A program made the position numbers and the translations under genes. Of a DNA stretch of 48,410 nucleotides, positions 1 to 10,482 are shown piece after piece. The notes beneath the pieces are model-generated. The model was not told the DNA's origin, did not search any database, and was given only the letters and a program-made list of their open reading frames with translations. Position 1 is the first letter of the stretch, and every line of letters starts with the position of its first letter. The stretch is taken from the IMG/VR virus record IMGVR_UViG_3300020281_000037, positions 1-48,410 of that record, one strand, 5' to 3'. The DNA comes from a virus.

Positions 1-2
1 TA

Positions 3-80
3 AAAATGCGTCAAGAACTGACATTCGATAGACGAAGAGATAAAGAAAAGTGGGATAAAAAGGAAGCGAAAAAGAAATGA
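3..80 (+). CDS. 3' end of an unknown basic protein (partial, or a 24-aa ORF)
   Basis: This frame is open to the left edge of the window and ends at TGA 78-80. An in-frame ATG lies at 6, so it could also be a complete 24-residue peptide. The visible residues are very rich in Lys, Arg, Asp and Glu, with no hydrophobic core, like the charged tail of a longer protein. The stop overlaps the ATG of the next gene (ATGA at 77-80), which suggests translational coupling. No function can be assigned. Confidence 0.4.
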   Translation, partial: KMRQELTFDRRRDKEKWDKKEAKKK

Positions 81-436
81 AATGGGCTATTATATTTTAT
101 GCAATCATGGGTTATGAGGGGTTTGTAAAGGACACCGAACTCTTAATCAGTTGGAATTTGACGTTTGATAATCAGGCTCAATGCGAGTCATTTTATCGTG
201 GAAACGAGGTCAATCTACATTCTGGTGTGTTACAGTATGCAAAAAATACCTACAAATCTAGAATGCACGTAGTCGAAATGGGTTGTGTTCATGCAACAAC
301 ACAATCTTCTACAGACACAAAACCAGAACTCAAGGACTTCAATCCTCTATATAAACGACCAATAAGTCCGTATGGTGGACAAGAATGGAGAGAGAACAAA
401 CACTATGACAACGAATTATTACTACGAGGGAACTGA
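77..436 (+). CDS. hypothetical protein, possibly exported
   Basis: 119 aa, not recognised. The N-terminus (MKWAIIFYAIMGYEGFV) is short and hydrophobic after one Lys, so it could be a signal or anchor segment, but it is weak and has no clear cleavage site. Two Cys residues (about 36 and 69) could form a disulfide if the protein is exported. The C-terminal third is polar and Pro-rich. The start ATG at 77 overlaps the upstream stop, and a purine-rich AAAGGAAG lies about 11 nt upstream. The next gene begins inside its 3' end. Confidence 0.6.
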   Translation: MKWAIIFYAIMGYEGFVKDTELLISWNLTFDNQAQCESFYRGNEVNLHSGVLQYAKNTYKSRMHVVEMGCVHATTQSSTDTKPELKDFNPLYKRPISPYGGQEWRENKHYDNELLLRGN

Positions 437-584
437 TTATGGAACAATGCACCCATTTCATTTTGACTTTTGGTATCATCTATTCGTGCCTTGGGATGGT
501 CTAAATTGGTGTATGTTGGTATGTTTATTGATACCTGTGGTGGTATATATTAATGATAGGGTGCATTGGTATGATATAAGATGA
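405..584 (+). CDS. small single-pass membrane protein, unknown
   Basis: The open frame starts at ATG 372, which would overlap the upstream gene by 65 nt. I prefer ATG 405, which has GGAGAG about 13 nt upstream and gives a 59-aa protein. The protein has a Tyr/His/Phe-rich N-terminal part and one strong hydrophobic segment (WCMLVCLLIPVVVYI), then a short polar tail ending DRVHWYDIR. The stop TGA 582-584 overlaps the ATG at 581 of another small membrane ORF, so the two may be co-translated. The function is unknown; small membrane proteins in phage early regions often act on the host envelope, which is inference here. Confidence 0.5.
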   Translation: MTTNYYYEGTDYGTMHPFHFDFWYHLFVPWDGLNWCMLVCLLIPVVVYINDRVHWYDIR

Positions 585-670
585 TGATAATTTTTTATCT
601 TATCATTTTTATGGGTATAACATGGATATTGGCTTGGTTAGTATGGATTGCAATGTATGATGACGAATAA
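581..670 (+). CDS. 29-aa single-TM microprotein
   Basis: This short ORF starts at ATG 581 (ATG 584 is also possible) and ends at TAA 668-670. It is almost entirely one hydrophobic helix (IIFYLIIFMGITWILAWLVW) followed by an acidic tail, MYDDE. The start overlaps the previous stop and the 3' end overlaps the next gene, the same coupled layout as its neighbours. The ORF is short enough to be chance, but its composition and position favour a real membrane microprotein. Confidence 0.35.
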   Translation: MMIIFYLIIFMGITWILAWLVWIAMYDDE

Positions 671-884
671 CAAAAGTAAAAAGATTATTTTTATCACAGA
701 TCTAATAGAAAGTAAGTTACAAAAACAACGAGAAATTGAGAAGTACGAGAGTCAACTCAAGATTATCGAAGAAAAACTCTTCTTCCTACGAAAAGAAAAA
801 GAGATCACAGAAACAATACTTGAATTGATTGAACACGAAAAGATCATGGATCTTAAAAATTATATGATAGAGGATGATACATGA
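657..884 (+). CDS. small coiled-coil protein, unknown
   Basis: The open frame can be extended to TTG at 648, but the first ATGs are at 657 and 660, and I take 657, giving about 75 aa. After a short basic N-terminus the protein is a nearly continuous amphipathic helix rich in Lys, Glu, Gln and Leu, with heptad-like hydrophobic spacing (residues ~15-65), so it probably dimerises as a coiled coil. It overlaps the 29-aa membrane ORF upstream by 14 nt and shares ATGA with the glutaredoxin gene at 881. It is not a recognised family. Confidence 0.5.
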   Translation: MMTNNKSKKIIFITDLIESKLQKQREIEKYESQLKIIEEKLFFLRKEKEITETILELIEHEKIMDLKNYMIEDDT

Positions 885-1114
885 AAATATTGATGTACTC
901 CAGACGCAAACCACCTTGTCAATTCTGCGTCCGAGCCAAGTCTATGTTAGATTATTATGGAGTCGAATACGAAGAAAAACTCCTAGACGATATCAATCAT
1001 CTGATAGAGTTCAAAGACAATTACCCCAACATCAAACAAGTACCAGCGATCTTCATTGATGACGAATATATTGGTGGATATAATGAACTAGAAAAGAGAT
1101 TATGGAAAAAGTAA
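881..1114 (+). CDS. glutaredoxin
   Basis: 77-aa single-domain glutaredoxin of the thioredoxin fold. It starts with the beta strand MKILMYS, then the redox motif C13-Q-F-C16, and has the cis-Pro loop V54-P55-A56 followed by IFIDDEYIGGYNEL, the glutathione-site GG element of glutaredoxins. In T4-like phages such proteins (for example NrdC) supply electrons to ribonucleotide reductase or reduce disulfides in the cytoplasm. No reductase gene lies in this window, so the partner is unknown. The start overlaps the upstream stop (ATGA). The C-terminus overlaps the sulfotransferase-like gene by 13 nt, indicating one operon. Both catalytic cysteines are intact. Confidence 0.9.
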   Translation: MKILMYSRRKPPCQFCVRAKSMLDYYGVEYEEKLLDDINHLIEFKDNYPNIKQVPAIFIDDEYIGGYNELEKRLWKK

Positions 1115-1704
1115 AAAGACTCTTCATACACATACCCAAGAATGGTGGAACGTCAGTACACAAAGAAATGACAAACGCACTCTCATTCGGTCATTATAGA
1201 TGGAGAGATGTTCCTAGAGATATACGATACATATATCAATCTTTTGCAGTGATTCGTAATCCTTGGGCCAGAATGGTATCAAGATATGTCATGGGAATAC
1301 CTACTTCAAATACAAATGATCATGGAGTAAAATGGAATACTTTTGAAGAGTTTCTAGAAACCAGATATGTATGGAAAGTCGATATACATTCAGTTGTTGA
1401 TCCCATCAGAAGCTGGAGTACACAATATGATTATGTCTGTGACGAGAGTGGTATAGTACGCTGTGATATATTAAGATTAGAATTTATTGATGACGAATTG
1501 AGTCCTTATCTGAATCTGAATACACCATATATTGTCATAGAAAATGTAGGTGACTATACAAGAAATTACCAAGATTATTATAATAACGAACAAACCATAC
1601 AAATAGTCGCTGATTGGTATAAACAGGACATAGACTATTGGGGGTTTGATTTCGATACAAGTGCAACAAAAAATTATCATTATAGTGAAAGGAGAATAAC
1701 ATGA
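1102..1704 (+). CDS. sulfotransferase-family protein
   Basis: 200 aa, matching the PAPS-dependent sulfotransferase fold (Sulfotransfer_2-like). The N-terminal strand-loop FIHIPKNGGTS (residues 8-18) is the 5'-phosphosulfate-binding loop. FAVIRNPWARMVSRY (48-62) has the Arg52 and Ser60 of the 3'-phosphate-binding motif. The C-terminal stretch around NYQDYYNNEQT, then an Asp-rich helix and YWGFDF, also follows the family pattern. The expected reaction is transfer of sulfate from PAPS to a sugar or other hydroxyl, but the substrate cannot be read from the sequence. It overlaps the glutaredoxin gene at its 5' end and the lipoprotein gene (ATGA) at its 3' end. Confidence 0.8.
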   Translation: MEKVKRLFIHIPKNGGTSVHKEMTNALSFGHYRWRDVPRDIRYIYQSFAVIRNPWARMVSRYVMGIPTSNTNDHGVKWNTFEEFLETRYVWKVDIHSVVDPIRSWSTQYDYVCDESGIVRCDILRLEFIDDELSPYLNLNTPYIVIENVGDYTRNYQDYYNNEQTIQIVADWYKQDIDYWGFDFDTSATKNYHYSERRIT

Positions 1705-1892
1705 TGAAATACTGTATATTAATAGGACTATTATTAGGTGCGTGTAGTACAAACTATGTAACCAAAGAGGGTCAAAGACTACTAGGAAATACAGCTGCTG
1801 GATGTATATTAGGTGAAGTCGCATTTGGTAAGTGTGAAGAGGGTGCAGCTATCGGTGCATTTACGACAGTAATAACAGATCAGAAGAGGTAA
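1701..1892 (+). CDS. small lipoprotein
   Basis: 63 aa. MMKYCILIGLLLGAC is a lipoprotein signal peptide with lipobox L-G-A-C (Cys15 would become the lipidated residue), followed by STNYVTKEGQ. The mature part is small and rich in Gly and Ala (LLGNTAAGCILGEVAFG), with two more Cys residues that could pair. Its Gly/Ala-rich end resembles small envelope lipoproteins with a glycine-zipper. A strong AAGGAG lies at 1690-1695, and the start codon overlaps the upstream stop. Possible roles are host envelope modification, superinfection exclusion or an outer-membrane spanin-like part. No inner-membrane spanin partner is evident nearby. Confidence 0.65.
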   Translation: MMKYCILIGLLLGACSTNYVTKEGQRLLGNTAAGCILGEVAFGKCEEGAAIGAFTTVITDQKR

Positions 1893-1897
1893 TAAGT

Positions 1898-2128
1898 ATG
1901 ACATTTAAAGTGAACAAAATGCATAAGCTACAAGATCAAATAGAATCACTTACATATGATTGGGTATGGGAAGATATCAGAGAACAATATGGAGTCGAAG
2001 AAGTAGAAGAGTTGAATCAAGAACAAATTGATGAAATATCTACCTTTGCAGAGAGTGATGATTGTTATGAAGGATATGTAAGTATGACATTAAGAAGTAT
2101 ATGTGACTCATGGGAGGCGAACTATTAA
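1898..2128 (+). CDS. hypothetical acidic protein
   Basis: 76 aa, strongly acidic (many Glu and Asp), with predicted helices (LQDQIESLTYDWVWEDIREQYG; EELNQEQIDEIST). Acidic proteins of this size in phage early regions are sometimes DNA mimics or host-enzyme inhibitors, but nothing here proves that. The start follows an AGAGG 10-15 nt upstream. The stop TAA at 2126-2128 lies 1 nt before the ATG of the next gene. Confidence 0.6.
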   Translation: MTFKVNKMHKLQDQIESLTYDWVWEDIREQYGVEEVEELNQEQIDEISTFAESDDCYEGYVSMTLRSICDSWEANY

Positions 2129-2129
2129 T

Positions 2130-2696
2130 ATGCAAGTGACCAAACAAATGAAAAATAAATGGGGTAGTTATTCAGACCGACAAAACAATTATGATGACGA
2201 TTCAGATTGCGAAACTTTTATTGAACATACAAAGAACAATCGTGATCTTCAAACCTATATTCTACGATATGTCAATTCATGCTCATCAGTACAATTCCAT
2301 ATGAAACAATGGCCTCATTGCAGATGGAAAATCAAACCAGATGGTAAGTATGGTATTGATCTCGCTCTTGTGAATGATGATAAAAGACTTCTTCATATAG
2401 ACGTAGAAAGATGGTCACAATGGAAAGGTGATTGGCCTTCATACTATAAACATCTTCATTTTCTAGGAAGAAAAGATCATTTTCTAGAAGATGATCCTCG
2501 TTTTCTTATGGTGTATATGAACTATGAACGAAATAAACTCATTGTAGTGAGTAAAGACGTTATAAAAAGATATAAAACCAAAAACAAGTATTTTTCTCAT
2601 AAAAAATGTTATGATCAAGTTAAAGAAATGAAAATAAGTGATGGCCATATATTCGGATATAACATCACTCCTACAGAGAGAAGAAACTTTGCGTAG
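2130..2696 (+). CDS. possible restriction-endonuclease-fold protein
   Basis: The open frame can begin at 2103, but that would overlap the upstream gene. ATG 2130 follows its stop directly and has GGGAGG at 2112-2117, giving 188 aa. The core reads GKYGIDLALV, then RLLHIDVERW (Asp77, Asp91 and Glu93 in this numbering), followed by a basic segment FLGRKDHF and the strand RFLMVYMNY. An acidic residue, a strand with acid-x-acid, and alternating strands recall PD-(D/E)xK nucleases, but the final Lys of the motif is not clear. It may be a degenerate member or another fold. It is the last gene before a 320-nt spacer with a promoter. Confidence 0.55.
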   Translation: MQVTKQMKNKWGSYSDRQNNYDDDSDCETFIEHTKNNRDLQTYILRYVNSCSSVQFHMKQWPHCRWKIKPDGKYGIDLALVNDDKRLLHIDVERWSQWKGDWPSYYKHLHFLGRKDHFLEDDPRFLMVYMNYERNKLIVVSKDVIKRYKTKNKYFSHKKCYDQVKEMKISDGHIFGYNITPTERRNFA

Positions 2697-2838
2697 ATTC
2701 ATGGGAAATCGTGGGATAAAATGGGATTTGCGTACAATATTAAAAAAGGTATAAAAAAAGGTAGTTAGGTGTTTTCTTTTGTGCATTAAAGGTCGTATTC
2801 TATCACGAAAATTTTTTTTTGTCAAGGGGTTTTTTCAC

Positions 2839-2867
2839 TTGACAGAGAGAACGAATCGGTGTAAAGT
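2839..2867 (+). promoter_or_regulatory. sigma70-like early promoter
   Basis: TTGACA at 2839-2844, a 17-nt spacer, and TAAAGT at 2862-2867. The spacer ends in ACGAATCGGTG, almost identical to the spacer end of the promoter at 6391 (ACGAATCAGTG). A GATTCG follows at 2876-2881. The start site would be near 2873, leaving almost no leader for the ATGs at 2868/2874. Confidence 0.7.
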
Positions 2868-2960
2868 ATGAATATGATTCGATTTTTAATAGTAGCAATA
2901 GTCATGTGGTTAATAATTGTGGGTGTGTATGCGGCCATATTATTATCAAATATCTCTTGA
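2868..2960 (+). CDS. possible 30-aa single-TM microprotein
   Basis: ATG 2868 to TGA 2958-2960. The product is one hydrophobic helix (FLIVAIVMWLIIVGVYAAIL) flanked by MNMIR and SNIS. Its ATG lies at or just before the predicted start site of the promoter at 2839, so it would be leaderless if translation began at ATG 2874. No ribosome binding site is seen. The stop codon overlaps the -35 box of the next promoter. It resembles the 29-aa membrane ORF at 581, but chance cannot be excluded. Confidence 0.25.
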   Translation: MNMIRFLIVAIVMWLIIVGVYAAILLSNIS

Positions 2961-2985
2961 CAAACTCTTGACAAGTTGATATACT
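2957..2985 (+). promoter_or_regulatory. sigma70-like early promoter (with second -35 box)
   Basis: TTGACA 2957-2962, 17 nt, TATACT 2980-2985. A second TTGACA lies 11 nt further at 2968-2973, with a poorer -10 (TATGCT 2989-2994, 15-nt spacing). This is the same double -35 design as at 3534/3546. It drives the gene at 3020. GATTCG at 3011-3016 lies in the leader next to the ribosome binding site AAGGTG. Confidence 0.8.
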
Positions 2986-3019
2986 GACTATGCTAGGAAT
3001 GATATAAGGTGATTCGATT

Positions 3020-3262
3020 ATGATTATATCCGATTGGGATTCAGAATGTTATATGGGTAGAGATTCGAGTGATTCGGAGTCTGTCTATAATACTACAGAG
3101 ATGCACACAGGGCCAGAGAATAAGAAAAATTGTCCTTGTGATTCGTGTCCTCTTTCTCTCCAGTGTATGCAGAACATCACAGAATGTTCTGCATTTCGCA
3201 ATTGGGCGAGTAAGGGTGATTACAATGATAATGATTTAGGAAAGAGATTGAGGAGTTGTTAA
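3020..3262 (+). CDS. small Cys-rich (zinc-binding-type) protein
   Basis: 80 aa. An acidic, Ser-rich N-terminus is followed by a cluster of six Cys in the pattern C-x-C-x2-C-x5-C-x5-C (starting CPCDSC), then AFRNWASKGDY. Such Cys clusters usually bind zinc or an iron-sulfur cluster; the spacing does not identify a named family to me. AAGGTG lies about 8 nt before the ATG, and the gene follows the promoter at 2957. An 11-bp perfect inverted repeat (3167-3194) lies inside the Cys-rich coding part. The last codons overlap the start of the next gene (TAATG at 3260-3264). Confidence 0.65.
   Translation: MIISDWDSECYMGRDSSDSESVYNTTEMHTGPENKKNCPCDSCPLSLQCMQNITECSAFRNWASKGDYNDNDLGKRLRSC
3167..3194. 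repeat. 11-bp perfect inverted repeat inside a gene
   Basis: ATGCAGAACAT at 3167-3177 is exactly reverse-complemented at 3184-3194, with a 6-nt loop. The 8-mer CAGAACAT also appears in the spacers of the promoters at 5339 and 5600. It could be an mRNA hairpin or a dyad protein-binding site within the coding region. Confidence 0.8.
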
Positions 3263-3537
3263 TGACAAAAGAAACATCTATAGGAGAACTATTACAGTTT
3301 GATGAGGCATTGAAGTCTGACTTGTTTCTACAACAAGCTGAGAACAAGAAGTTGTTTGATGAGATATGTGATGATAAAGATTGGAAGATGCCCTTTACTT
3401 GTTACATTCCTACAGAGATGTATGCGTCTTATAATGAAGCGTGTATCTGGTTTACAGGTGCAGAGTTGGTTGTGCAAAACGAATCAGGTGGTGTGACACA
3501 TTGTTCTTGTGAGGGATATTATAACGCAATGGGTTGA
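3262..3537 (+). CDS. hypothetical protein
   Basis: The open frame extends to a TTG at 3256, but ATG 3262 sits in a TAATG overlap with the upstream stop and has AGGAG at 3251-3255, so I take 3262 (91 aa). The protein starts with a helical part (IGELLQFDEALKSDLFLQQAENKKLFDEI), then a segment with aromatic residues and three Cys (FTCYIPTEMYASYNEACIWF; HCSCEGYYNAMG at the C-terminus). No family is recognised. The stop codon overlaps the first of two tandem promoter -35 boxes. Confidence 0.6.
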   Translation: MTKETSIGELLQFDEALKSDLFLQQAENKKLFDEICDDKDWKMPFTCYIPTEMYASYNEACIWFTGAELVVQNESGGVTHCSCEGYYNAMG

Positions 3538-3574
3538 CAAATGAGTTGACACGCACTATATAGTATGATATAAT
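3534..3574 (+). promoter_or_regulatory. tandem sigma70-like promoters, one perfect consensus
   Basis: Promoter a: TTGACA 3534-3539, 17 nt, TATATA 3557-3562. Promoter b: TTGACA 3546-3551, 17 nt, TATAAT 3569-3574, a perfect consensus at both boxes and spacing. The two are offset by 12 nt. They would produce a leader of about 75 nt for the gene at 3655. GATTCG at 3584-3589 lies just downstream. Confidence 0.85.
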
Positions 3575-3583
3575 AATAGAAAT

Positions 3584-3618
3584 GATTCGGCCGCCCCCCT
3601 AAAACTGGGCAGCCAATC
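3584..3618 (+). promoter_or_regulatory. GC-rich hairpin in the 5' leader
   Basis: GATT-C-GGC-C-GCCC (3584-3596) pairs with GGGC-A-GCC-AATC (3607-3618) around a 10-nt loop. There are 11 base pairs, one bulged C and one C/A mismatch. It is strikingly GC-rich for this genome, starts within a few nt of the predicted transcription start, and has no T tract, so it is more likely an mRNA 5'-end stabiliser or regulator than a terminator. Confidence 0.7.
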
Positions 3619-3654
3619 ATAATCTATAAATGCAATAAAGATACAGAAAAATAT

Positions 3655-3864
3655 ATGAATTGTTGGCATTGTAATACAGAGTTGATATGGGGCGGCGATC
3701 ATGACGCAAATGATGATGAGTTAGAATATTCTATGGTCACTAATCTCTCATGTCCGAATGAACAATGCAAAGCTTCTGTTTTAGTCTATCTACCTAAAGA
3801 AGATACAGAAGATATGCCATGGACAGTTCAAGGAACAGAGAGTCAATATGACACACAGAACTGA
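3655..3864 (+). CDS. small zinc-ribbon-type protein
   Basis: 69 aa with two Cys pairs: CWHC at residues 3-6 and CPNEQC near residues 33-38, the usual four-Cys zinc ribbon. Between them is an acidic loop (GGDHDANDDELEY). Small proteins starting MNCWHCNTELIWGGDHD are familiar to me from marine T4-like phages, where they are annotated as hypothetical. No clear Shine-Dalgarno precedes the ATG. The gene follows a leader with strong tandem promoters and a hairpin. It overlaps the phosphoribosyltransferase gene by 17 nt. Confidence 0.75.
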   Translation: MNCWHCNTELIWGGDHDANDDELEYSMVTNLSCPNEQCKASVLVYLPKEDTEDMPWTVQGTESQYDTQN

Positions 3865-4264
3865 AGCAAGATTATTTGAATATGGTGAGTTTACTTCTCA
3901 CTCTGGTAATACTCTTAAATTTAAATTAGAGTGTGATGCGTTTGATATGAAAGATTGGAATAGTATTGCTTCTATCATTATGACATATCAGACAGAACCA
4001 TTTAGATCTGTAGAGGGTATTCCTAGAGGTGGCATTCCTCTTGCAGATGCATTAAGAAAATATGCGACAGGTGATCCGACACATCAGCCAATGTTAGTAG
4101 ATGATGTATTTACGACAGGTAAATCCTTTATAGATTTTATTGATGAACATTATCCAAATGATTTAATGTCATGGTCTTATAAATGGGTTGTCTTTGCACG
4201 AACACCAATACACACAACACCAGCAGATAAGTTGGGTATTAGAGCCTTATTCACAATGCCATGA
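3848..4264 (+). CDS. phosphoribosyltransferase-family protein
   Basis: 138 aa, type I PRTase fold. VEGIPRGGIPLADAL (55-69) is the usual strand-loop before the PRPP site, and MLVDDVFTTGKS (82-93) is the PRPP-binding motif with two Asp and the Thr-Thr-Gly-Lys/Ser loop. The C-terminal strand WVVFAR follows the normal order. Phage PRTases of this length occur in marine T4-like phages. They could act in nucleotide salvage or synthesis, but the base substrate cannot be predicted. The start lies inside the upstream gene and the stop overlaps the next ATG (ATGA 4261-4264), so translation of the three genes is probably coupled. Confidence 0.85.
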   Translation: MTHRTEARLFEYGEFTSHSGNTLKFKLECDAFDMKDWNSIASIIMTYQTEPFRSVEGIPRGGIPLADALRKYATGDPTHQPMLVDDVFTTGKSFIDFIDEHYPNDLMSWSYKWVVFARTPIHTTPADKLGIRALFTMP

Positions 4265-4764
4265 GAAAACCTTTGTTACTTTTAATTTTTGTTCTTGTAG
4301 TTCAAGAGATAATCGCAAAAGAATCACAGATGTATGAACTGATAGGGTTCATAGAAAACAATAGTGAATACTCTTACACAGGCACACCTCTACCCACAGT
4401 ACAAGTTATGTCAAACGAATCAATCTGTAAAGAGTTTAAATTGACATACCCATGCGATATTGCAGGCTATTATGATAATCGTACTGACATTATTGCAATT
4501 GCAACAAAACCGACAGGTGGTATGATTGAGAAAAATTTTTACGAAGTGGTACTGATACATGAGTTAGTACATTACTTGCAGTATCACAATGGATATTATG
4601 AAGTGGTGGAATGTAAACAACAATTAGAAGCTGATGCGTTTCGTCTGCAAGACGAGTATATAGATCATATGGGATACGATCCAGCAAATAAAAATGATCC
4701 TCTCTTTGCTCTGATGGCAAGTATGTGTCGAGGTCAGAATGGATATATAAGTGGTGGAATGTAG
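4261..4764 (+). CDS. secreted zinc metallopeptidase-like protein (HExxH)
   Basis: 167 aa. A signal peptide (MRKPLLLLIFVLVVQEIIA, cleavage probably after Ala19) leads to a domain with H100-E-L-V-H104 in a helix (EVVLIHELVHYLQYHNGYYE), and QLEADAFRLQ, whose Glu123 is a fitting third zinc ligand. That is the gluzincin layout. Four to five Cys residues could form disulfides in the periplasm. The start overlaps the PRTase stop. A phage protein exported to the periplasm could process host envelope proteins, or could be released on lysis; the target is unknown. The catalytic residues look intact. Confidence 0.75.
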   Translation: MRKPLLLLIFVLVVQEIIAKESQMYELIGFIENNSEYSYTGTPLPTVQVMSNESICKEFKLTYPCDIAGYYDNRTDIIAIATKPTGGMIEKNFYEVVLIHELVHYLQYHNGYYEVVECKQQLEADAFRLQDEYIDHMGYDPANKNDPLFALMASMCRGQNGYISGGM

Positions 4765-4773
4765 GATAAAAAA

Positions 4774-5115
4774 ATGATTCAAAAAATCGGAAAATGGTTC
4801 GGAAGAGTTTGTATAAGTTGGAGTATCTTTGTAAATACTTTCTTTGGTGGAAAGAATAATCAAACTGTGAGCGCAAGACAGTACTTTCGACAATTACAAA
4901 ATAGATGGAATTTTTGTTTTTTGATTAATGGATTCTTCTGGTGGCAAGAGAATCATTGTAAAGATAGTTATGATAAATGGGAAGTGATTAATAACGCAAT
5001 GCAGTATTATGATGAATACAAAGAGAAGTATTCTATCAATGCATATGAATTAGGAGAAGATCATGTTGAGGAGAAAGATCCTTTACATGATTATTATCGT
5101 TTGATGACTCAGTAA
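4774..5115 (+). CDS. hypothetical protein of a marine phage family
   Basis: 113 aa. It has a basic/aromatic N-terminus (IGKWFGRVCISWSIFVNTFFGG), then NQTVSARQYFRQLQNRWNF, a hydrophobic stretch FLINGFFWW, and a helical acidic C-terminus. The GG-x-x-NQT-x-SAR block followed by a hydrophobic stretch and HCxxSY/W resembles a family I have seen annotated as hypothetical in marine phages and bacteria. The two hydrophobic parts could associate with a membrane, but neither is a clear TM helix. It stands 10 nt after the metallopeptidase gene, in the same orientation. Confidence 0.6.
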   Translation: MIQKIGKWFGRVCISWSIFVNTFFGGKNNQTVSARQYFRQLQNRWNFCFLINGFFWWQENHCKDSYDKWEVINNAMQYYDEYKEKYSINAYELGEDHVEEKDPLHDYYRLMTQ

Positions 5116-5129
5116 TAAGGAGATAGAGT

Positions 5130-5342
5130 ATGAGTAGTAAACCATTTGGAACACCAGCCCAAGATCTGTTAGATGATGGACAGATAGAAGAACCCACCAT
5201 ACATTATAAGATTAAGAAGAAAAGAAAAACTATGAAAGAGATGTGGGATAATCAGTATGGTGAGGGTACACGATTTGATCTCGACTATGGTAAATTAATA
5301 ATCCTTGCACTTTGCATTTATATAGCCGTAAAAGTTTCTTGA
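5130..5342 (+). CDS. small membrane-anchored protein
   Basis: 70 aa. A polar, Lys-rich N-terminal part (HYKIKKKRKTMKEMW, residues ~26-40) is followed by one C-terminal hydrophobic helix (LIILALCIYIAVKV). This gives a tail-anchored arrangement with the basic part probably in the cytoplasm. AAGGAG at 5117-5122 lies about 7 nt before the ATG. The stop TGA overlaps the -35 box of the following promoter (5339). Function unknown. Confidence 0.6.
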   Translation: MSSKPFGTPAQDLLDDGQIEEPTIHYKIKKKRKTMKEMWDNQYGEGTRFDLDYGKLIILALCIYIAVKVS

Positions 5343-5367
5343 CATTGTTATCAGAACATGGTATAGT
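5339..5367 (+). promoter_or_regulatory. sigma70-like early promoter, copy 1 of a duplicated control region
   Basis: TTGACA 5339-5344, 17 nt, TATAGT 5362-5367, followed directly by GATTCG (5368-5373) and TAAACAA. From the spacer to 5380 it is nearly identical to the region at 5600-5641. It drives the gene at 5400, with AAAGAGAG before the ATG. Confidence 0.8.
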
Positions 5368-5399
5368 GATTCGTAAACAAAAGAAAGAGAGTATATATT

Positions 5400-5591
5400 A
5401 TGAAACTTACTGAAAAGCAATTAAATGAAATTCAATCTAGATTAGGTGAACTTGCTAAAATTAAAAAAACTTTACCAGATTTAGTCAATGACTTAGGTTG
5501 GGAGTTTGAAAGAATGTCCAGCTCTGGTCAGAAAACCTTAAATAAAATTGCAAAAATTGTTGGTGTTCAACCTTTCGTTGATTTTTCTTAA
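5400..5591 (+). CDS. small helical protein, unknown
   Basis: 63 aa, predicted all-helical, basic overall (LTEKQLNEIQSRLGELAKI, then LPDLVNDLGWEFERM and SGQKTLNKIAKIVGV). It is the only gene between two nearly identical promoters, so it is expressed from its own promoter. The helix-turn-helix-like arrangement raises the possibility of a small regulator, but no DNA-binding motif can be shown. Confidence 0.6.
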   Translation: MKLTEKQLNEIQSRLGELAKIKKTLPDLVNDLGWEFERMSSSGQKTLNKIAKIVGVQPFVDFS

Positions 5592-5599
5592 AAAAAGAC

Positions 5600-5628
5600 T
5601 TGACTTTGTTCTCAGAACATGGTATAGT
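5600..5628 (+). promoter_or_regulatory. sigma70-like early promoter, copy 2 of a duplicated control region
   Basis: TTGACT 5600-5605, 17 nt, TATAGT 5623-5628, followed directly by GATTCG (5629-5634) and TAAACAA, then a purine-rich leader. The spacer TCAGAACATGG matches copy 1 at 5351-5361. It drives the LPD29-like gene at 5661. Confidence 0.8.
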
Positions 5629-5660
5629 GATTCGTAAACAAGAGAAAGAGAGAGAAACGA

Positions 5661-6086
5661 ATGGCATATATTTCAACTAATGATGTTAAACATATCCGAA
5701 ATACTTTAAAGAAAGAATTTCCACAGTATAAATTTTCTGTAAGACGAGATAGTATTTACAGTGTTACTGTTTCATTTATGAAAGGCCCTTCTTTTAAAGA
5801 TTGGGAATACAGAGATAAATATACTGGCGAAATGAAAGTTGGTTCTTTAAATGATGGTGAACATCATCAGATCAATCATTTCTATACAACAGATTTCTAT
5901 GGAATAGAAAACGCAAAAATCTTAGATAAAGTTTATAGAATTATGAAAGTTGCTCCTGCTTTAAATGGTGGGAAAGCATGGTATGATAATTCAGATGCCA
6001 TGACAGATTATTTTGATACTGCATACTATATGCATATCGAAGTTGGTAAGTGGGATAAATCTTATGAAGTTATGGAGGCTGCGTAA
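5661..6086 (+). CDS. LPD29-like domain protein
   Basis: 141 aa. The N-terminal ISTNDVKHIRNTLKKEFP, then YKFSVRRDS, and the C-terminal WYDNSDAMTDYFDTAYYMH with EVGKWDKSY correspond to the LPD29 module (large polyvalent protein-associated domain 29). That module was first defined as a part of very large mobile-element proteins and also occurs as short free-standing phage and plasmid proteins. The biochemical role of the domain is not established; protection of incoming DNA or regulation of the host has been suggested for polyvalent proteins. Here it is a single domain under its own strong promoter. It overlaps the next gene by 1 nt (TAATG). Confidence 0.7.
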   Translation: MAYISTNDVKHIRNTLKKEFPQYKFSVRRDSIYSVTVSFMKGPSFKDWEYRDKYTGEMKVGSLNDGEHHQINHFYTTDFYGIENAKILDKVYRIMKVAPALNGGKAWYDNSDAMTDYFDTAYYMHIEVGKWDKSYEVMEAA

Positions 6087-6382
6087 TGAACTTAGTACAT
6101 GAAAAATTTACTGAAACTGAATATCGTAAATTCAATATAGTTTCAGACGAAACACAAATGTTTGTTAGTTATGTTTGGTCTTTTTACAATCATGTTGATG
6201 GTGTTTATCCTATTGAGGGATTGACTAAAGATATGGTTGTAGATGCAACACACAAGTATATAGCTGATCTGCGTGACGATATTACTTGGGGTGGTGGTGA
6301 CTCCTTAGATAGAGAAAGAGTACGAGATATAATCCTAGAAGATAATGATCTAGGACATGATTGTTTTTTTACAAGATTTTAA
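6086..6382 (+). CDS. hypothetical protein
   Basis: 98 aa, acidic, with no recognised motif. The N-terminal half is aromatic-rich (TQMFVSYVWSFYNHVDGVYP), and the C-terminal half reads DLRDDITWGGGDSLDRERVRDIILEDND, predicted helical. The start is coupled to the LPD29-like gene (TAATG 6084-6088), so the two are expected to be expressed together and may work together. The stop lies just upstream of the promoter at 6391. Confidence 0.6.
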   Translation: MNLVHEKFTETEYRKFNIVSDETQMFVSYVWSFYNHVDGVYPIEGLTKDMVVDATHKYIADLRDDITWGGGDSLDRERVRDIILEDNDLGHDCFFTRF

Positions 6383-6390
6383 TTATTTAC

Positions 6391-6419
6391 TTGACATACA
6401 AAACGAATCAGTGTATAAT
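6391..6419 (+). promoter_or_regulatory. perfect-consensus sigma70-like promoter
   Basis: TTGACA 6391-6396, 17 nt, TATAAT 6414-6419. The spacer ends in ACGAATCAGTG, matching the promoter at 2839 (ACGAATCGGTG). It drives the gene at 6453. Confidence 0.9.
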
Positions 6420-6452
6420 ATATGTATAATTAATGAGAGAGGAAATAATAAT

Positions 6453-6656
6453 ATGTTTGGACAACCATTACCAAAAGTTAAGTTAACACCAAAGTTTAGT
6501 TTATTTTTAAATGATGATAAGTTTGTTACTTTTACATCTGACACTTTAGCAAAGTGTAAGGCGATGGCAAAGAAACTTGGTAAACCTTGTACTGTCTATG
6601 TTGACTATGGACGTAATTTTGCCCCTATATGGTCTAAGAGAGATTGGAGTATATAA
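6453..6656 (+). CDS. small hypothetical protein
   Basis: 67 aa. The open frame extends upstream to 6357, but that part crosses the promoter at 6391; ATG 6453 follows the promoter with GAGAGG about 13 nt upstream. The protein reads FSLFLNDDKFVTFTSDTL, then AKCKAMAKKLGKPCTVYVDYG, a beta-beta-alpha-beta pattern like small DUF-type phage proteins. It has two Cys and is basic. The stop TAA 6654-6656 overlaps the next ATG. No function is recognised. Confidence 0.65.
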   Translation: MFGQPLPKVKLTPKFSLFLNDDKFVTFTSDTLAKCKAMAKKLGKPCTVYVDYGRNFAPIWSKRDWSI

Positions 6657-7072
6657 TGTCGTCCTTTAATGAAGAATATTATAAGAGTATAGGTGGTGTT
6701 TTGGAATCAAATGATTATACTGAACAATCAAATTTATTTAATGTATCTTGGGCTCTTCATGAGGGTTATAAAGATATATCAGAAAAGTTAGATGATCTTA
6801 TTCCACTTGAGGGTGCAGTTCCACAAGGGCGTTCTGTTAACAAGTGTCTTGAAAAATTTAGAGTTGCACAAAATCTAATCTATGATTTATTTAATAATGG
6901 ATTGTGTAATAGAAGATCTCATTTCAAACAGTTCTTTGGTTGGGCTCCTTATACTAGGAATAGTATAAGTCAAAATGAATTTAATTATTATGAGATAGAA
7001 TTAGAGCCTGTCTTTACAAAGATTATAATAGATGCATACAAAGAACAAAAGAATCTAGGGAATATAGAATGA
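6656..7072 (+). CDS. hypothetical protein
   Basis: 138 aa from ATG 6656 (TAATG overlap with the upstream stop; TGGAG at 6645-6649). A TTG at 6644 would add only four residues. The protein is predicted mostly helical, with LFNVSWALHEGYKDISEKLDD in the first half and CLEKFRVAQNLIYDLFNNGLC plus a basic CNRRSHFKQFFGWAPY in the second. No family is recognised. The stop overlaps the next ATG (7069-7072). Confidence 0.6.
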   Translation: MSSFNEEYYKSIGGVLESNDYTEQSNLFNVSWALHEGYKDISEKLDDLIPLEGAVPQGRSVNKCLEKFRVAQNLIYDLFNNGLCNRRSHFKQFFGWAPYTRNSISQNEFNYYEIELEPVFTKIIIDAYKEQKNLGNIE

Positions 7073-7302
7073 AAAAGTATTTTGTAAAATATAAGTATAA
7101 ATTTCCTTTAGATGCATGGGATAGGCCTGGTGGTCGATATAGTCTTGTAGACTTACCCATTCGTAGTCATAAAGTATTAACTAGAGAGGGTATTATCCTT
7201 TCTAAAAATGACGAACATGATATGTTTAAAATTAAAGACTTACATAATAAATTAATTACTGTGTGGGTTGATAAATCAGAAGTGGAGATATTAAACCCAT
7301 GA
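7069..7302 (+). CDS. hypothetical beta-rich protein
   Basis: 77 aa with many predicted strands: YFVKYKYKFPL, YSLVDLPIRSHKVL, GIILSKND, LITVWVDKSEVEIL. This suggests a small SH3- or OB-like barrel. The function is unknown. It is coupled to both neighbours by ATGA overlaps (7069-7072 and 7299-7302), so it shares the transcript starting at 6391. Confidence 0.6.
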   Translation: MKKYFVKYKYKFPLDAWDRPGGRYSLVDLPIRSHKVLTREGIILSKNDEHDMFKIKDLHNKLITVWVDKSEVEILNP

Positions 7303-7577
7303 AAAAATTATTAATTATTATAACTTTAATTATTATGGGTTGTCATCCACTCAATGCATTTGAATTGCGAATGAATAATCAAGATGCACTTAAACAACAA
7401 ATGATTGGTTTGTTATTAAACCAACTCTTTAATGGCAATCAAGTAAATGTTGGTAATACAAATATCAACAAGAATGTGATTGCAAATTGGGCTACCAACA
7501 AACATGAAAGAATGTGTTGGATTTCTCAAAAGTATAATTCCAATGGTACAATTGTAAACAAACTACAATGTGATTAA
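7299..7577 (+). CDS. small exported protein, possibly a lipoprotein
   Basis: 92 aa. MKKLLIIITLIIMGCHPLNAFE is a signal peptide. It could be cut after LNA (residue ~20) or, because IIMGC resembles a lipobox, lipidated at Cys15. The mature part is rich in Asn and Gln (NGNQVNVGNTNINKN) with two further Cys (around CWISQKY and the C-terminal QCD). It is the last gene before the 7610-7645 palindrome, so it closes the early operon. It may act in the periplasm; no family is recognised. Confidence 0.6.
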   Translation: MKKLLIIITLIIMGCHPLNAFELRMNNQDALKQQMIGLLLNQLFNGNQVNVGNTNINKNVIANWATNKHERMCWISQKYNSNGTIVNKLQCD

Positions 7578-7609
7578 TTTTTCCTTTTTGATTTCTTAAC
7601 TATAACTTT

Positions 7610-7645
7610 CCCTTTGCAGTATAAATACTTCAAAGGGATTTTTTT
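7610..7645 (+). terminator. near-perfect palindrome plus T tract (terminator-like), containing the late promoter
   Basis: CCCTTTG (7610-7616), C, AGTAT (7618-7622), AA, ATACT (7625-7629), T, CAAAGGG (7631-7637): twelve base pairs with one mismatch and a tiny loop. Seven T residues follow at 7639-7645, directly before the ATG at 7646. As RNA from upstream it would form a terminator-like hairpin. Its 3' arm contains AAAGGG (7632-7637), which fits as the ribosome binding site of the next gene. Confidence 0.75.
7620..7627 (+). promoter_or_regulatory. T4-type late promoter
   Basis: TATAAATA, an exact match to the T4 late promoter, 18 nt before the ATG at 7646. It lies in the centre of the palindrome 7610-7637. 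The start site, about 6 nt after the box, falls near 7633, so late RNA lacks the 5' arm of the hairpin. Confidence 0.85.
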
Positions 7646-8710
7646 ATGCAAACACAAAGACTATCATATTTTTCTGGTAGAGATGGATTTCTCTGGTGGG
7701 TTGGTGTTGTAGAAGATCGTATAGATCCTATGTCACTAGGAAGAGTACGAGTTAGAGTATTTGGTTATCATACATCAGATAAAACAAAACTTGCGACAGA
7801 AGATTTGCCGTGGGCGTTTTGTATTCAACCTTGTACATCTGCTTCCGCTGGTGGTGTAGGAACTTCTCCGACAGGCCCAATAGAAGGAACATGGGTAATT
7901 GGTTTTTGGAGAGATCCAGACTTTCTACAAGAACCTATGGTGTTTGGAACAATACCTGGCTATATAGGCCCTAATGGTGCTCCTCAAGGTGGAGCTCCAT
8001 ATGATTATTCACAAGATCAAAATCGTGAACCAGGCACGATAAGTGAGAACACAGTAATTGCAGATGGGGTTACATCAGAGTTTGATCTACCAGCAAGTTC
8101 TCAAGACTCTACAGTATTAGTAACTAAAGATGGTATACCAGATAAAGCAACAAACGCACCACCCTCTTCATTTATGAATACTGAAGTTTCTACGGCAGAA
8201 TTTTCTGGTGCAAGAACATATACTAAAAATGACTTTCCATTATCTACCAGAGGAACTACAACTGCAAATGCATTAAATAAATTATTACCATTTGTAAGAG
8301 ATAGGATTGCAAAAGGTATTAATAGTTTTCTTCAATCTAATAGTGGTTGGGATATAAGCATAGGTTCTGGATATAGAACAAACGCACAACAACAAGAATT
8401 GTATAACAAATATAAAGCAGGTAGAATGGGTAAAGCTGCAAAACCTGGCTTCTCTTGGCACAACTTTGCGTGTGCAGTTGATGTAACAATATTTAGAGCA
8501 GATGGTTCTTATGATGATGGAAGAAGAGGAGATAGTAACTATAAAGGAAGAGCTCGTTCTGCATTTAAAGCTTTCAATATGCAGAATAGTATTCCAAATG
8601 ATATGGGTCACTTTTATCCATCAGAGTTTCCAAAGTATCCACCAAAGGCTGTAAGGATAGGAAAGAAGTCTGTTACCAAGTATGCGAGAGAAAGAGGAGT
8701 GTCAATTTAA
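7646..8710 (+). CDS. 5: gp5-like baseplate hub/spike protein with M15 peptidase domain
   Basis: 354 aa. Residues 1-110 (RDGFLWWVGVVEDRIDP, LGRVRVRVFGYH, DLPWAFCIQP) match the gp5/VgrG OB-fold at the base of the spike. A Pro/Gly-rich linker follows. Residues ~225-340 form an M15 D,D-peptidase domain: SGYRTNAQQQELY, then S270-W-H272-N-F-A-C-A-V-D279 (the SxHxxGxAxD motif, with Ala in place of Gly), and G-H322-F-Y as the last zinc ligand. In T4 gp5 the equivalent position holds a lysozyme; here a peptide-cutting enzyme probably opens the peptidoglycan during DNA injection. It is the first late gene, expressed from the promoter at 7620. Confidence 0.85.
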   Translation: MQTQRLSYFSGRDGFLWWVGVVEDRIDPMSLGRVRVRVFGYHTSDKTKLATEDLPWAFCIQPCTSASAGGVGTSPTGPIEGTWVIGFWRDPDFLQEPMVFGTIPGYIGPNGAPQGGAPYDYSQDQNREPGTISENTVIADGVTSEFDLPASSQDSTVLVTKDGIPDKATNAPPSSFMNTEVSTAEFSGARTYTKNDFPLSTRGTTTANALNKLLPFVRDRIAKGINSFLQSNSGWDISIGSGYRTNAQQQELYNKYKAGRMGKAAKPGFSWHNFACAVDVTIFRADGSYDDGRRGDSNYKGRARSAFKAFNMQNSIPNDMGHFYPSEFPKYPPKAVRIGKKSVTKYARERGVSI

Positions 8711-10482
8711 TGGCATATGAAATAGAAGAAAGAAAAATCAAATTTGATAAACCACCAGCAAAAGGTACAGAGGTAAATCTAAAAGTTTCTACTCAACAAT
8801 CTCTTAATGGTTTTGCTGATCCTCGTTCTTTTTATCCTCGTAGAGTTAATGAAGTTGATACAAACAGACTTGCAGTAAATGATGCAACTAAACAACACCC
8901 TGTGGTCAATCTTAAAAGACAAAGAGTAGATGATCTGGTAGGAGAACCAGAAACACAGTATGCATCAAAGTATCCATACAATCATGTAAAAGAAACTGAG
9001 TCTGGTCATATCGTAGAGTTTGATGATACTCCAGGCCATGAACGTATACATGAATATCATAGGTCTGGTACTTTTTACGAAGTACATCCAGATGGTACAA
9101 AGGTTACAAAGATTATCGGTGATGACTATGAGATTGTGCATCAGAATAAAAAGTTAAGAGTAAGAGGAAATATTGAAGTCTACTGTGATGGTGATGCAGA
9201 TTTATATGTGCGTGGTTCTTTGACAGGACAGGTAGACGAGAATATAGATTTACACGCTGGTAAGAATATTAATATTCATGCTGGTAAGAATATGAGATTT
9301 TATGCAAATGACTCTATAGAGTTTACATCACAGAAAGAATTAACTGCAACATCTGTGGCAAAGATGACATTACAATCTTTAGCAGATATGAATATTAATG
9401 CAGAAGGCAATTACCTTACCAACATAAAAGGATATAGTCAAGTTCTTTCTGATAATCATATTACTTTAAATTCAAAATCTAAAATAACAGTAAAAACAAG
9501 TAGTGAGATTGATATCCTATCAACAAATGATTTGACGCTTGTGGGTGGTTCTATAAAATTAAATGATCCTAGTGATAGTGTTGGAACTGTGCAAGATGCA
9601 GAAGATACAAAATATAGAGATAGTTCTGGTGTAAATTTATATAGTGAAGGTAAAGAAGTTGACGCACCTGTAGAAGCTACAGTATTAGATGCAAAAGATT
9701 TAAGTGCATTAGCAGATGAACAATCTGTATATGGTGAAGATGATATTCCGAAATCAGATGCAGATATTAAAGCTGATGTTGCATCTGGAAATGCATTACC
9801 TTCTTCATCTTCAGATTATAGTTATAATTCTATTGATGGTAACTATAATTCGGAAAGTGCATCAAGACCATTAATATCAGTTCCAGCAGTTCCAGACTTT
9901 CCAAAAGAACATGGATATTCAACTGGACAATCAGAATTACTTTATACAGAAAACGCAAAGGTTACATCAGTAGTAAAACCTTCATTGATAAAACTTCCAG
10001 ATGATGGATCTATAGATTATAATATGTACATATCTTCCAAGTATAAACTTTCTAAACTTACACTTGCACCACCTGTAGGTCAGAAAATAAACAAAAGTAA
10101 AGAAGAAGCAGAAAAGATTATTAATAATTTAAGAGTTCTTGCAGTTAATTGTTTAGATCCATTACTTGCAGAATATCCTAAACTAAGAATTAACATGGGA
10201 TATTTTGAATCAAGGCCTGGTACATCTTCTGCACATTCATTGGGTGAAGCAGTTGACATACAGGTTGCAGATGCAAGTAAAGGAGAATACTTTGAGATTG
10301 CAATATGGATTAGAGAAAACTTACCACACGATTCTATTATATTACAATATAGAACTACTGGTTCTGGTATGCCTTGGATTCATCTTGGTTGTAAGGAGTC
10401 TGGTAATAGATCAGATATGATAACACAATACAATGGAAAAACAACAACCGAATTAGGACAGATTGCACAGTATTATGCCTAA
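8710..10482 (+). CDS. spike beta-helix protein with second M15 peptidase domain
   Basis: 590 aa. Residues ~95-300 (FDDTPGHERIHEYHRSGTFYEV, VRGNIEVYCDGDADLYVRG, then NIDLHAGKNINIHAGKN) are the gp5/VgrG-type triple-stranded beta-helix. A low-complexity Ser/Asp linker follows (~300-430). The C-terminus is another M15 domain: A-H509-S-L-G-E-A-V-D516 and P-W-I-H558-L supply the three zinc ligands. In T4, OB-fold, lysozyme and beta-helix are in one chain; here the spike is split over two genes, each with its own peptidase. AGGAG at 8695-8699; TAATG overlap with the upstream stop. Confidence 0.8.
   Translation: MAYEIEERKIKFDKPPAKGTEVNLKVSTQQSLNGFADPRSFYPRRVNEVDTNRLAVNDATKQHPVVNLKRQRVDDLVGEPETQYASKYPYNHVKETESGHIVEFDDTPGHERIHEYHRSGTFYEVHPDGTKVTKIIGDDYEIVHQNKKLRVRGNIEVYCDGDADLYVRGSLTGQVDENIDLHAGKNINIHAGKNMRFYANDSIEFTSQKELTATSVAKMTLQSLADMNINAEGNYLTNIKGYSQVLSDNHITLNSKSKITVKTSSEIDILSTNDLTLVGGSIKLNDPSDSVGTVQDAEDTKYRDSSGVNLYSEGKEVDAPVEATVLDAKDLSALADEQSVYGEDDIPKSDADIKADVASGNALPSSSSDYSYNSIDGNYNSESASRPLISVPAVPDFPKEHGYSTGQSELLYTENAKVTSVVKPSLIKLPDDGSIDYNMYISSKYKLSKLTLAPPVGQKINKSKEEAEKIINNLRVLAVNCLDPLLAEYPKLRINMGYFESRPGTSSAHSLGEAVDIQVADASKGEYFEIAIWIRENLPHDSIILQYRTTGSGMPWIHLGCKESGNRSDMITQYNGKTTTELGQIAQYYA

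What the first reader, a model, noticed from the sequence alone, without database searches (positions are those of the whole stretch)
7610..7646. Late promoter inside a terminator-like palindrome that also hides the ribosome binding site of the first spike gene
The 28-nt near-perfect palindrome 7610-7637 is followed by seven T residues, and has the exact late box TATAAATA in its centre and AAAGGG, the likely ribosome binding site of the gene at 7646, in its 3' arm. RNA read through from the early operon would form the whole hairpin, so it would terminate or have a sequestered site. RNA from the late promoter starts near 7633, lacks the 5' arm and would be freely translated. In T4, gene e and a few others are known to block translation of early read-through RNA with such a hairpin. 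Here one 36-nt element would combine early stop, translation block and late start.
Basis: partly seen in the sequence, partly recalled or inferred. Interest (0 to 1): 0.85.

Follow-up and report, generated by a model that had tools for sequence, protein, structure and literature searches.

The report
Late promoter inside a transcription terminator
At the border between the early and late genes of a T4-like aquatic phage, one conserved 37-base hairpin looks able to stop early transcripts, hide the ribosome binding site of any transcript that slips through, and start late transcripts from its own tip, so that late RNA polymerase escapes the stop signal it starts in.

Summary
A 30-nt near-perfect palindrome (7609-7638, one C/U mismatch) encloses the T4-type late box TATAAATA (7620-7627). 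It is followed by seven T (7639-7645) and the ATG of the first gp5 (baseplate hub/spike) gene. It is the only hairpin on the + strand of the 48-kb window that scores as an intrinsic terminator, and lies exactly between a region of sigma70-type promoters and a region of late promoters.

The element recurs before gp5 in two deep clades of uncultured relatives and in the isolate Melnitz. Its arms co-vary: over 22 distinct arm pairs, 228 Watson-Crick, 22 G-U and 1 A-C pairs. Stem and T tract go together. The same design occurs before the neck gene and, in single cases, other genes. In one neck form the ribosome binding site lies outside the hairpin, so stop plus late start is the constant core.

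T4 gene e is the known precedent for RBS hiding with an internal late promoter; my scan recovers it, but it lacks the T tract and does not score as a terminator. I call this a new variant of a known kind. No RNA data exist; termination and translation block are inferred.

The parts
7609..7622 (+). 5' arm of the hairpin (TCCCTTTGCAGTAT), present only in RNA coming from upstream
   Evidence: co-varies with the 3' arm in relatives
7620..7627 (+). T4-type late promoter box TATAAATA at the hairpin apex (-13 to -6)
   Evidence: invariant ATAAATA in the alignment of relatives; position of box relative to start from PMC1524935
7633..7633 (+). inferred +1 of late RNA; leader AAGGGAUUUUUUU, 13 nt
   Evidence: inference from box position -13 to -6; purine in all relatives examined
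7625..7638 (+). 3' arm of the hairpin (ATACTTCAAAGGGA)
7632..7637 (+). Shine-Dalgarno-like AAAGGG, the only candidate RBS of the gene at 7646, buried in the 3' arm
7639..7645 (+). T tract of the intrinsic terminator, also the spacer between RBS and ATG
7646..8710 (+). first gp5 gene: Gp5 N-terminal OB domain plus VanY-like peptidase domain (354 aa)
   Evidence: Pfam PF06714 E 4e-17, PF02557 E 4e-6; PHROG 430
8710..10482 (+). second gp5 gene: rest of the hub/spike (590 aa)
   Evidence: PHROG 430 E 1.5e-58
6391..6419 (+). nearest strong upstream sigma70-type promoter (TTGACA-17-TATAAT, 12/12) reading towards the element; others at 2957, 3546, 5339

Best explanation
A compact boundary element in which the late promoter lies at the apex of an intrinsic terminator. 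Early RNA polymerase coming from the sigma70-type promoters at 2957-6419 transcribes both arms; the hairpin and U7 release it at about 7640-7645, just before gp5. RNA that escapes still carries the hairpin, and its only Shine-Dalgarno sequence is base-paired, so gp5 is not translated early. Late polymerase (host core with gp55/gp33/gp45) starts at about 7633 inside the 3' arm. Its RNA lacks the 5' arm, so it can neither terminate there nor hide the RBS, and gp5 and the baseplate genes are expressed late. Shown by sequence: hairpin, box, T tract, position, conservation, co-variation, association of stem and T tract. Inferred: termination efficiency, early versus late timing, +1 position, translation block.
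For: Stem: arms complementary across 22 distinct arm pairs, 228 WC, 22 G-U, 1 A-C, 6 other. Swapping 3' flanks between relatives always lowers mean complementarity (0 of 20000 permutations, for gp5 and for the neck gene). The excess of G-U over A-C says RNA of the + strand, not a DNA operator. Terminator: d'Aubenton-Carafa-type score +28; positive in 35/35 gp5 and 7/7 neck hairpin elements, 6/31 and 0/24 box-only ones, and 0/40 other TATAAATA sites of window and T4. It is the only + strand hit in 48 kb. T run and hairpin go together (gp5 p 6e-6, neck p 2e-5, not corrected for phylogeny). RBS: unpaired probability 0.0001 in read-through, 0.90 in late RNA. Position: 4 strong + strand sigma70-type promoters in the first 7.6 kb (shuffle mean 0.34), 1 in the next 40.8 kb. 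Related isolate Melnitz has the element at 76334 between tRNA-Leu and gp5 and is annotated with a gp55-like sigma, a late-transcription coactivator and a gp45-like clamp.
Against: No RNA data. The sister clade L009-L018 does without hairpin and T tract. The RBS match to the anti-SD is modest (AAGG). Seven T at +7 to +13 could cause slippage or abortive release of late RNA. The terminator score formula was taken from memory, and relatives are not independent samples.
Confidence: 0.78

Rival explanations
1. Pure T4 gene e-type translation block: the hairpin only hides the RBS on read-through RNA and contains the late promoter; the T run is just an AT-rich spacer or ribosomal protein S1 site.
For: T4 genes e, soc, 49 and I-TevI work this way (PMC3014915; PMC2988022). 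T4 gene e is recovered by my scan and has no T tract. Some gp5 relatives have short RBS-hiding stems without a T run (L287, L306-L308).
Against: T run is tied to the full hairpin in two unrelated genes. Neck-gene elements keep hairpin, box and T6 although the ATG is about 22 nt beyond the stem with no RBS in it. Terminator scores separate the classes. There is no other + strand terminator in the window.
Confidence: 0.1
2. Terminator plus late promoter only; the RBS lies in the 3' arm because the late start site forces purines there, and translational hiding has no role.
For: Neck-gene and L171-type elements have no RBS in the stem.
Against: In the gp5 elements and the 274-aa neck form the only RBS is the 3' arm, and in gp5 it is almost fully paired in read-through RNA (mean 0.004 unpaired against 0.59 in late RNA).
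Confidence: 0.1
3. DNA palindrome acting as a protein operator over the late promoter, as I-TevI does at its own late promoter.
For: The palindrome covers the promoter; I-TevI autorepression is a precedent (PMC2988022).
Against: 22 G-U against 1 A-C non-WC pairs, a one-sided T tract, and arm sequence that changes as long as pairing holds.
Confidence: 0.01
4. 3'-end stabiliser or RNase III processing site of the early operon rather than a terminator.
For: A stable hairpin at the end of an operon also protects 3' ends (general knowledge).
Against: Does not explain the T tract or the box at the apex; could be an added effect rather than an alternative.
Confidence: 0.01

Closest known systems
T4 gene e (also soc, 49, I-TevI, segB; Aeh1 mobE) RBS-sequestering hairpins with an internal or adjoining late promoter
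   Same: Late box placed so that late RNA lacks the 5' strand of the hairpin; RBS paired only in RNA from early or middle promoters (PMC3014915, PMC2988022). My scan finds T4 e at 67018.
   Different: T4 e has no T tract and scores -16 as a terminator against +28 here. There the early RNA runs on into the gene; here it should stop. Different genes (gp5 hub, neck).
PeSL cassettes of T4-like phages (promoter-early stem-loop; Arbiol 2010, Comeau 2014; papers not held, known from citation in PMC4503421, and from memory)
   Same: Composite of terminator stem-loop and promoter in one short cassette between genes.
   Different: PeSLs carry sigma70-like early promoters, occur in many copies in hyperplastic regions and mediate recombination; as I recall, promoter and terminator lie side by side. 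Here the promoter is late, sits inside the stem-loop, and there is one copy per genome examined.
Terminator followed by a separate late promoter (e.g. L063-L065, L075 before gp5; Melnitz 129242)
   Same: Same boundary job, for gp5 at the same place.
   Different: Two adjacent parts instead of one merged part.

Membership tests
T4-type late promoter | TATAAATA box about 10 nt upstream of the start of late RNA, before a late gene | tested here: met
   Exact box before gp5; other exact boxes 18-27 nt before ATGs of late genes; start not mapped
T4-type late promoter | gp55/gp33/gp45 encoded by the phage | tested here: inconclusive
   Present by annotation in the related isolate Melnitz: genes 215, 90, 226; not searched in the window's own phage, of which the window is a fragment
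Intrinsic (Rho-independent) terminator | Stable G+C-closed hairpin followed directly by a T-rich tract | tested here: met
   -13.4 kcal/mol, T7; score +28; only + strand hit in the window
Intrinsic (Rho-independent) terminator | RNA released at the T tract | not testable with these tools
   needs in vitro transcription or 3'-end mapping
T4 gene e-type RBS-sequestering hairpin | RBS paired in read-through RNA, free in late RNA because the 5' arm is missing | tested here: met
   unpaired probability 0.0001 against 0.90; prediction only
T4 gene e-type RBS-sequestering hairpin | No terminator; early RNA reads on through the gene | tested here: not met
   T7 and score +28 here, -16 in T4 e
PeSL cassette | sigma70-like early promoter joined to a terminator stem-loop, many copies | tested here: not met
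   late box, one copy per genome
Rfam families | match at the gathering score | tested here: not met
   no match in the window

The most novel reading that the evidence does not exclude
Terminators with a late promoter at their apex form a widespread, repeatedly evolved class in aquatic T4-like phages: stop signals that the promoter they contain automatically bypasses. They sit at gp5, at the neck gene (at least two sequence forms), and in fewer cases at terminase and tail-fibre-assembly genes. Their primary job is to insulate neighbouring transcription units, with RBS hiding added where spacing allows.
Probability: 0.55. Interest if true: 0.7.

Novelty: new variant of a known kind. Interest (0 to 1): 0.62.

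Why it matters
It would show how phages with streamlined genomes can place early stop, translational lock and late start in under 40 bases, using the geometry that a promoter at a hairpin apex starts RNA inside the 3' arm. The late box TAT-AA-ATA is itself a near palindrome, which may predispose it to this. It also gives a sequence marker for late promoters and operon borders in pelagimyophages, where published late-promoter prediction was unsuccessful (PMC7029224). The isolate Melnitz on OM43 strain H5P1 makes the model testable.

Tried and rejected
Chance palindrome: rejected. DNA operator: disfavoured by the G-U bias. Rfam family: none. Direct near match in named phages: none by megablast, so tblastn and IMG/VR were used. 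The consensus terminator tool did not list the hairpin, probably because of its internal mismatch and loop rules, so I scored it myself. A first test with whole-fold pair counts was too loose to separate classes and was replaced by an enclosing-stem score. The MAFFT alignment is nearly ungapped across arms of unequal spacing, so column-wise covariation counting on it was not used. A single fixed pattern searched in whole genomes found nothing and was replaced by a stem scan. The PeSL papers are not in the library. HTVC008M and P-HM2 lack the element; in P-HM2 gp5 directly follows a tail gene, and in HTVC008M it follows a tail gene and two small ORFs.

Full report
What is there. The window is a virus record of 48,410 bases from a T4-like phage: gp5 OB domain, gp25-like and gp6-like baseplate wedge genes and a gp9/10-like gene lie downstream of 7646. 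The sequence at 7609-7638 is TCCCTTTGCAGTAT-AA-ATACTTCAAAGGGA, two 14-nt arms with one C/T mismatch, then T7 (7639-7645) and ATG 7646. The box TATAAATA fills the apex. RNA folding gives -14.2 kcal/mol for 7600-7650, z -5.0.

Position. On the + strand, sigma70-type promoters with 11 or 12 of 12 matches number four in bases 1-7600 (2957, 3546, 5339, 6391; mean of 300 shuffles 0.34) and one in the remaining 40.8 kb. Exact late boxes lie 18-27 nt before the ATG of six later genes. So the element stands at the border of a probable early region and a late region, both read left to right. A scan of all hairpins of the window with a d'Aubenton-Carafa-type score (formula from memory) finds one positive site on the + strand: this one.

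Relatives. Homologues of the gene at 7646 were fetched from IMG/VR with no condition on the upstream DNA (the query was itself found by a pattern search). Among 84 distinct gp5 upstream regions, 35 have a late box enclosed by a strong hairpin, 31 a box without a strong one, 18 no ATAAATA box. Six of the 31 still score as terminators, and two of these (L026, L050) are near-copies of elements in the first class. The arms differ between clades in a complementary way: CCCTTTG/CAAAGGG, CCCTTG/CAAGGG, CCCCTTTAC/GTAAAGGGG, CCCCTTTTC/GGAAAGGGG, CCCCTTTGG/CCAAAGGGG, CCTCTTTG/CAAAGAGG, CTCCTTTAC/GTAAAGGAG. Over 22 distinct core stems (gp5 and neck) there are 228 Watson-Crick, 22 G-U, 1 A-C and 6 other pairs. 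G-U pairs are tolerated only in RNA of the + strand; a DNA palindrome would not favour them over A-C. If 3' flanks are swapped between types, mean complementarity falls in every one of 20,000 permutations. A gp5 tree puts the hairpin in two deep groups with about nine gains or losses. In the sister clade of the window, L009-L018, hairpin and T run are both absent while TATAAATA stays.

Other genes. A search for homologues of the neck gene (head-tail adaptor, PHROG 211) with no condition on upstream DNA finds the same design, CCCTTCTTG-ATAAATA-CAAGAAGGGATTTTTT sharing its central bases, with compensatory forms CCCTATCTG/CAGGTAGGG and CCCTACCTG/CAGGTAGGG, some with a CTAAATA box. There the ATG is about 22 nt beyond the stem, so the RBS is not hidden. 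A second neck form, TCTCCCCCTTATAAATA...AAAGGGGAGATTTTTTTATG, and one case before a terminase large subunit gene came from a pattern search that required the purine block and T run but not the 5' arm. Further cases (L147, L167, L171, L213) came from a pattern that required the arms and are weaker evidence; that these contigs use T4-type late promoters was not verified.

Terminator or only translational lock. The longest T run between box and ATG is 5 against 3 (medians) for gp5 elements with and without the hairpin, and 6 against 1 for the neck gene (p values not corrected for phylogeny). Terminator scores are positive in 35/35 and 7/7 hairpin elements, 6/31 and 0/24 box-only sites, and 0/40 other TATAAATA sites of window and T4. 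T4 gene e, the textbook RBS-hiding hairpin with late promoters, is the one T4 late-gene site my stem scan recovers, a positive control, and scores -16. RBS hiding is predicted as well: the G run of the RBS is unpaired with probability 0.0001 in read-through RNA and 0.90 in late RNA from 7633; over 31 relatives 0.004 and 0.59.

How it works, most likely. The late box occupies -13 to -6 (PMC1524935), so a box at the apex places +1 in the 3' arm. Late RNA therefore never has the 5' arm and passes the T run freely, with its RBS at its very 5' end. Upstream RNA has both arms and stops, or if it passes, is not translated. Melnitz, the nearest isolate (52% identity in this protein), carries the element between tRNA-Leu and gp5, one per genome, as do the long contigs tested, and is annotated with the late transcription factors. 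Its authors predicted promoters and terminators; the passages I read do not mention this overlap.

Known or new. RBS hiding with a late promoter that removes the 5' strand is known from T4 e, soc, 49, I-TevI (PMC3014915, PMC2988022). Promoter-terminator composites are known as PeSLs with early promoters (cited in PMC4503421). I found no report of a late promoter inside an intrinsic terminator in the searchable open-access library, which does not cover subscription journals. I therefore rate it a new variant of a known kind, with good comparative support and no RNA data.

Noticed in passing
window 3546-3619: A perfect sigma70-type promoter (TTGACA-17-TATAAT with TG) is followed at 3583-3619 by a GC-rich inverted repeat (TGATTCGGCCGCCCCCCTAAAACTGGGCAGCCAATCA, -19.4 kcal/mol for the - strand) ahead of a short ORF; no Rfam match.
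   Followed up: no
window 7646-10482: gp5 is split into two genes: OB domain plus VanY-like peptidase, then a gene with the remaining hub/spike and endolysin-like part.
   Followed up: partly
L009-L018 upstream of gp5: Sister clade of the window keeps TATAAATA but lacks both hairpin and T tract; in L018 the 3' arm AGAGGA could pair with TCCTCT of an upstream hairpin.
   Followed up: partly
L287, L303, L306-L308, L319 upstream of gp5: Short stems CCTTA/TAAGG around TATAAATA that would pair the RBS but lack a T run: a possible e-type state without the terminator.
   Followed up: no
Melnitz MZ577097 129242: T9 run preceded by a possible terminator, then a late box, then an AAAAGGGA RBS complementary to the CCCTTTT before it, after the major capsid gene.
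   Followed up: no
L147, L182, L205 and relatives: Hairpin CCCCTTAT-AATAAATAT-...ATAAGGGG-TTTTT before a 98-aa protein with a lipoprotein-like N-terminus, in several contigs.
   Followed up: no
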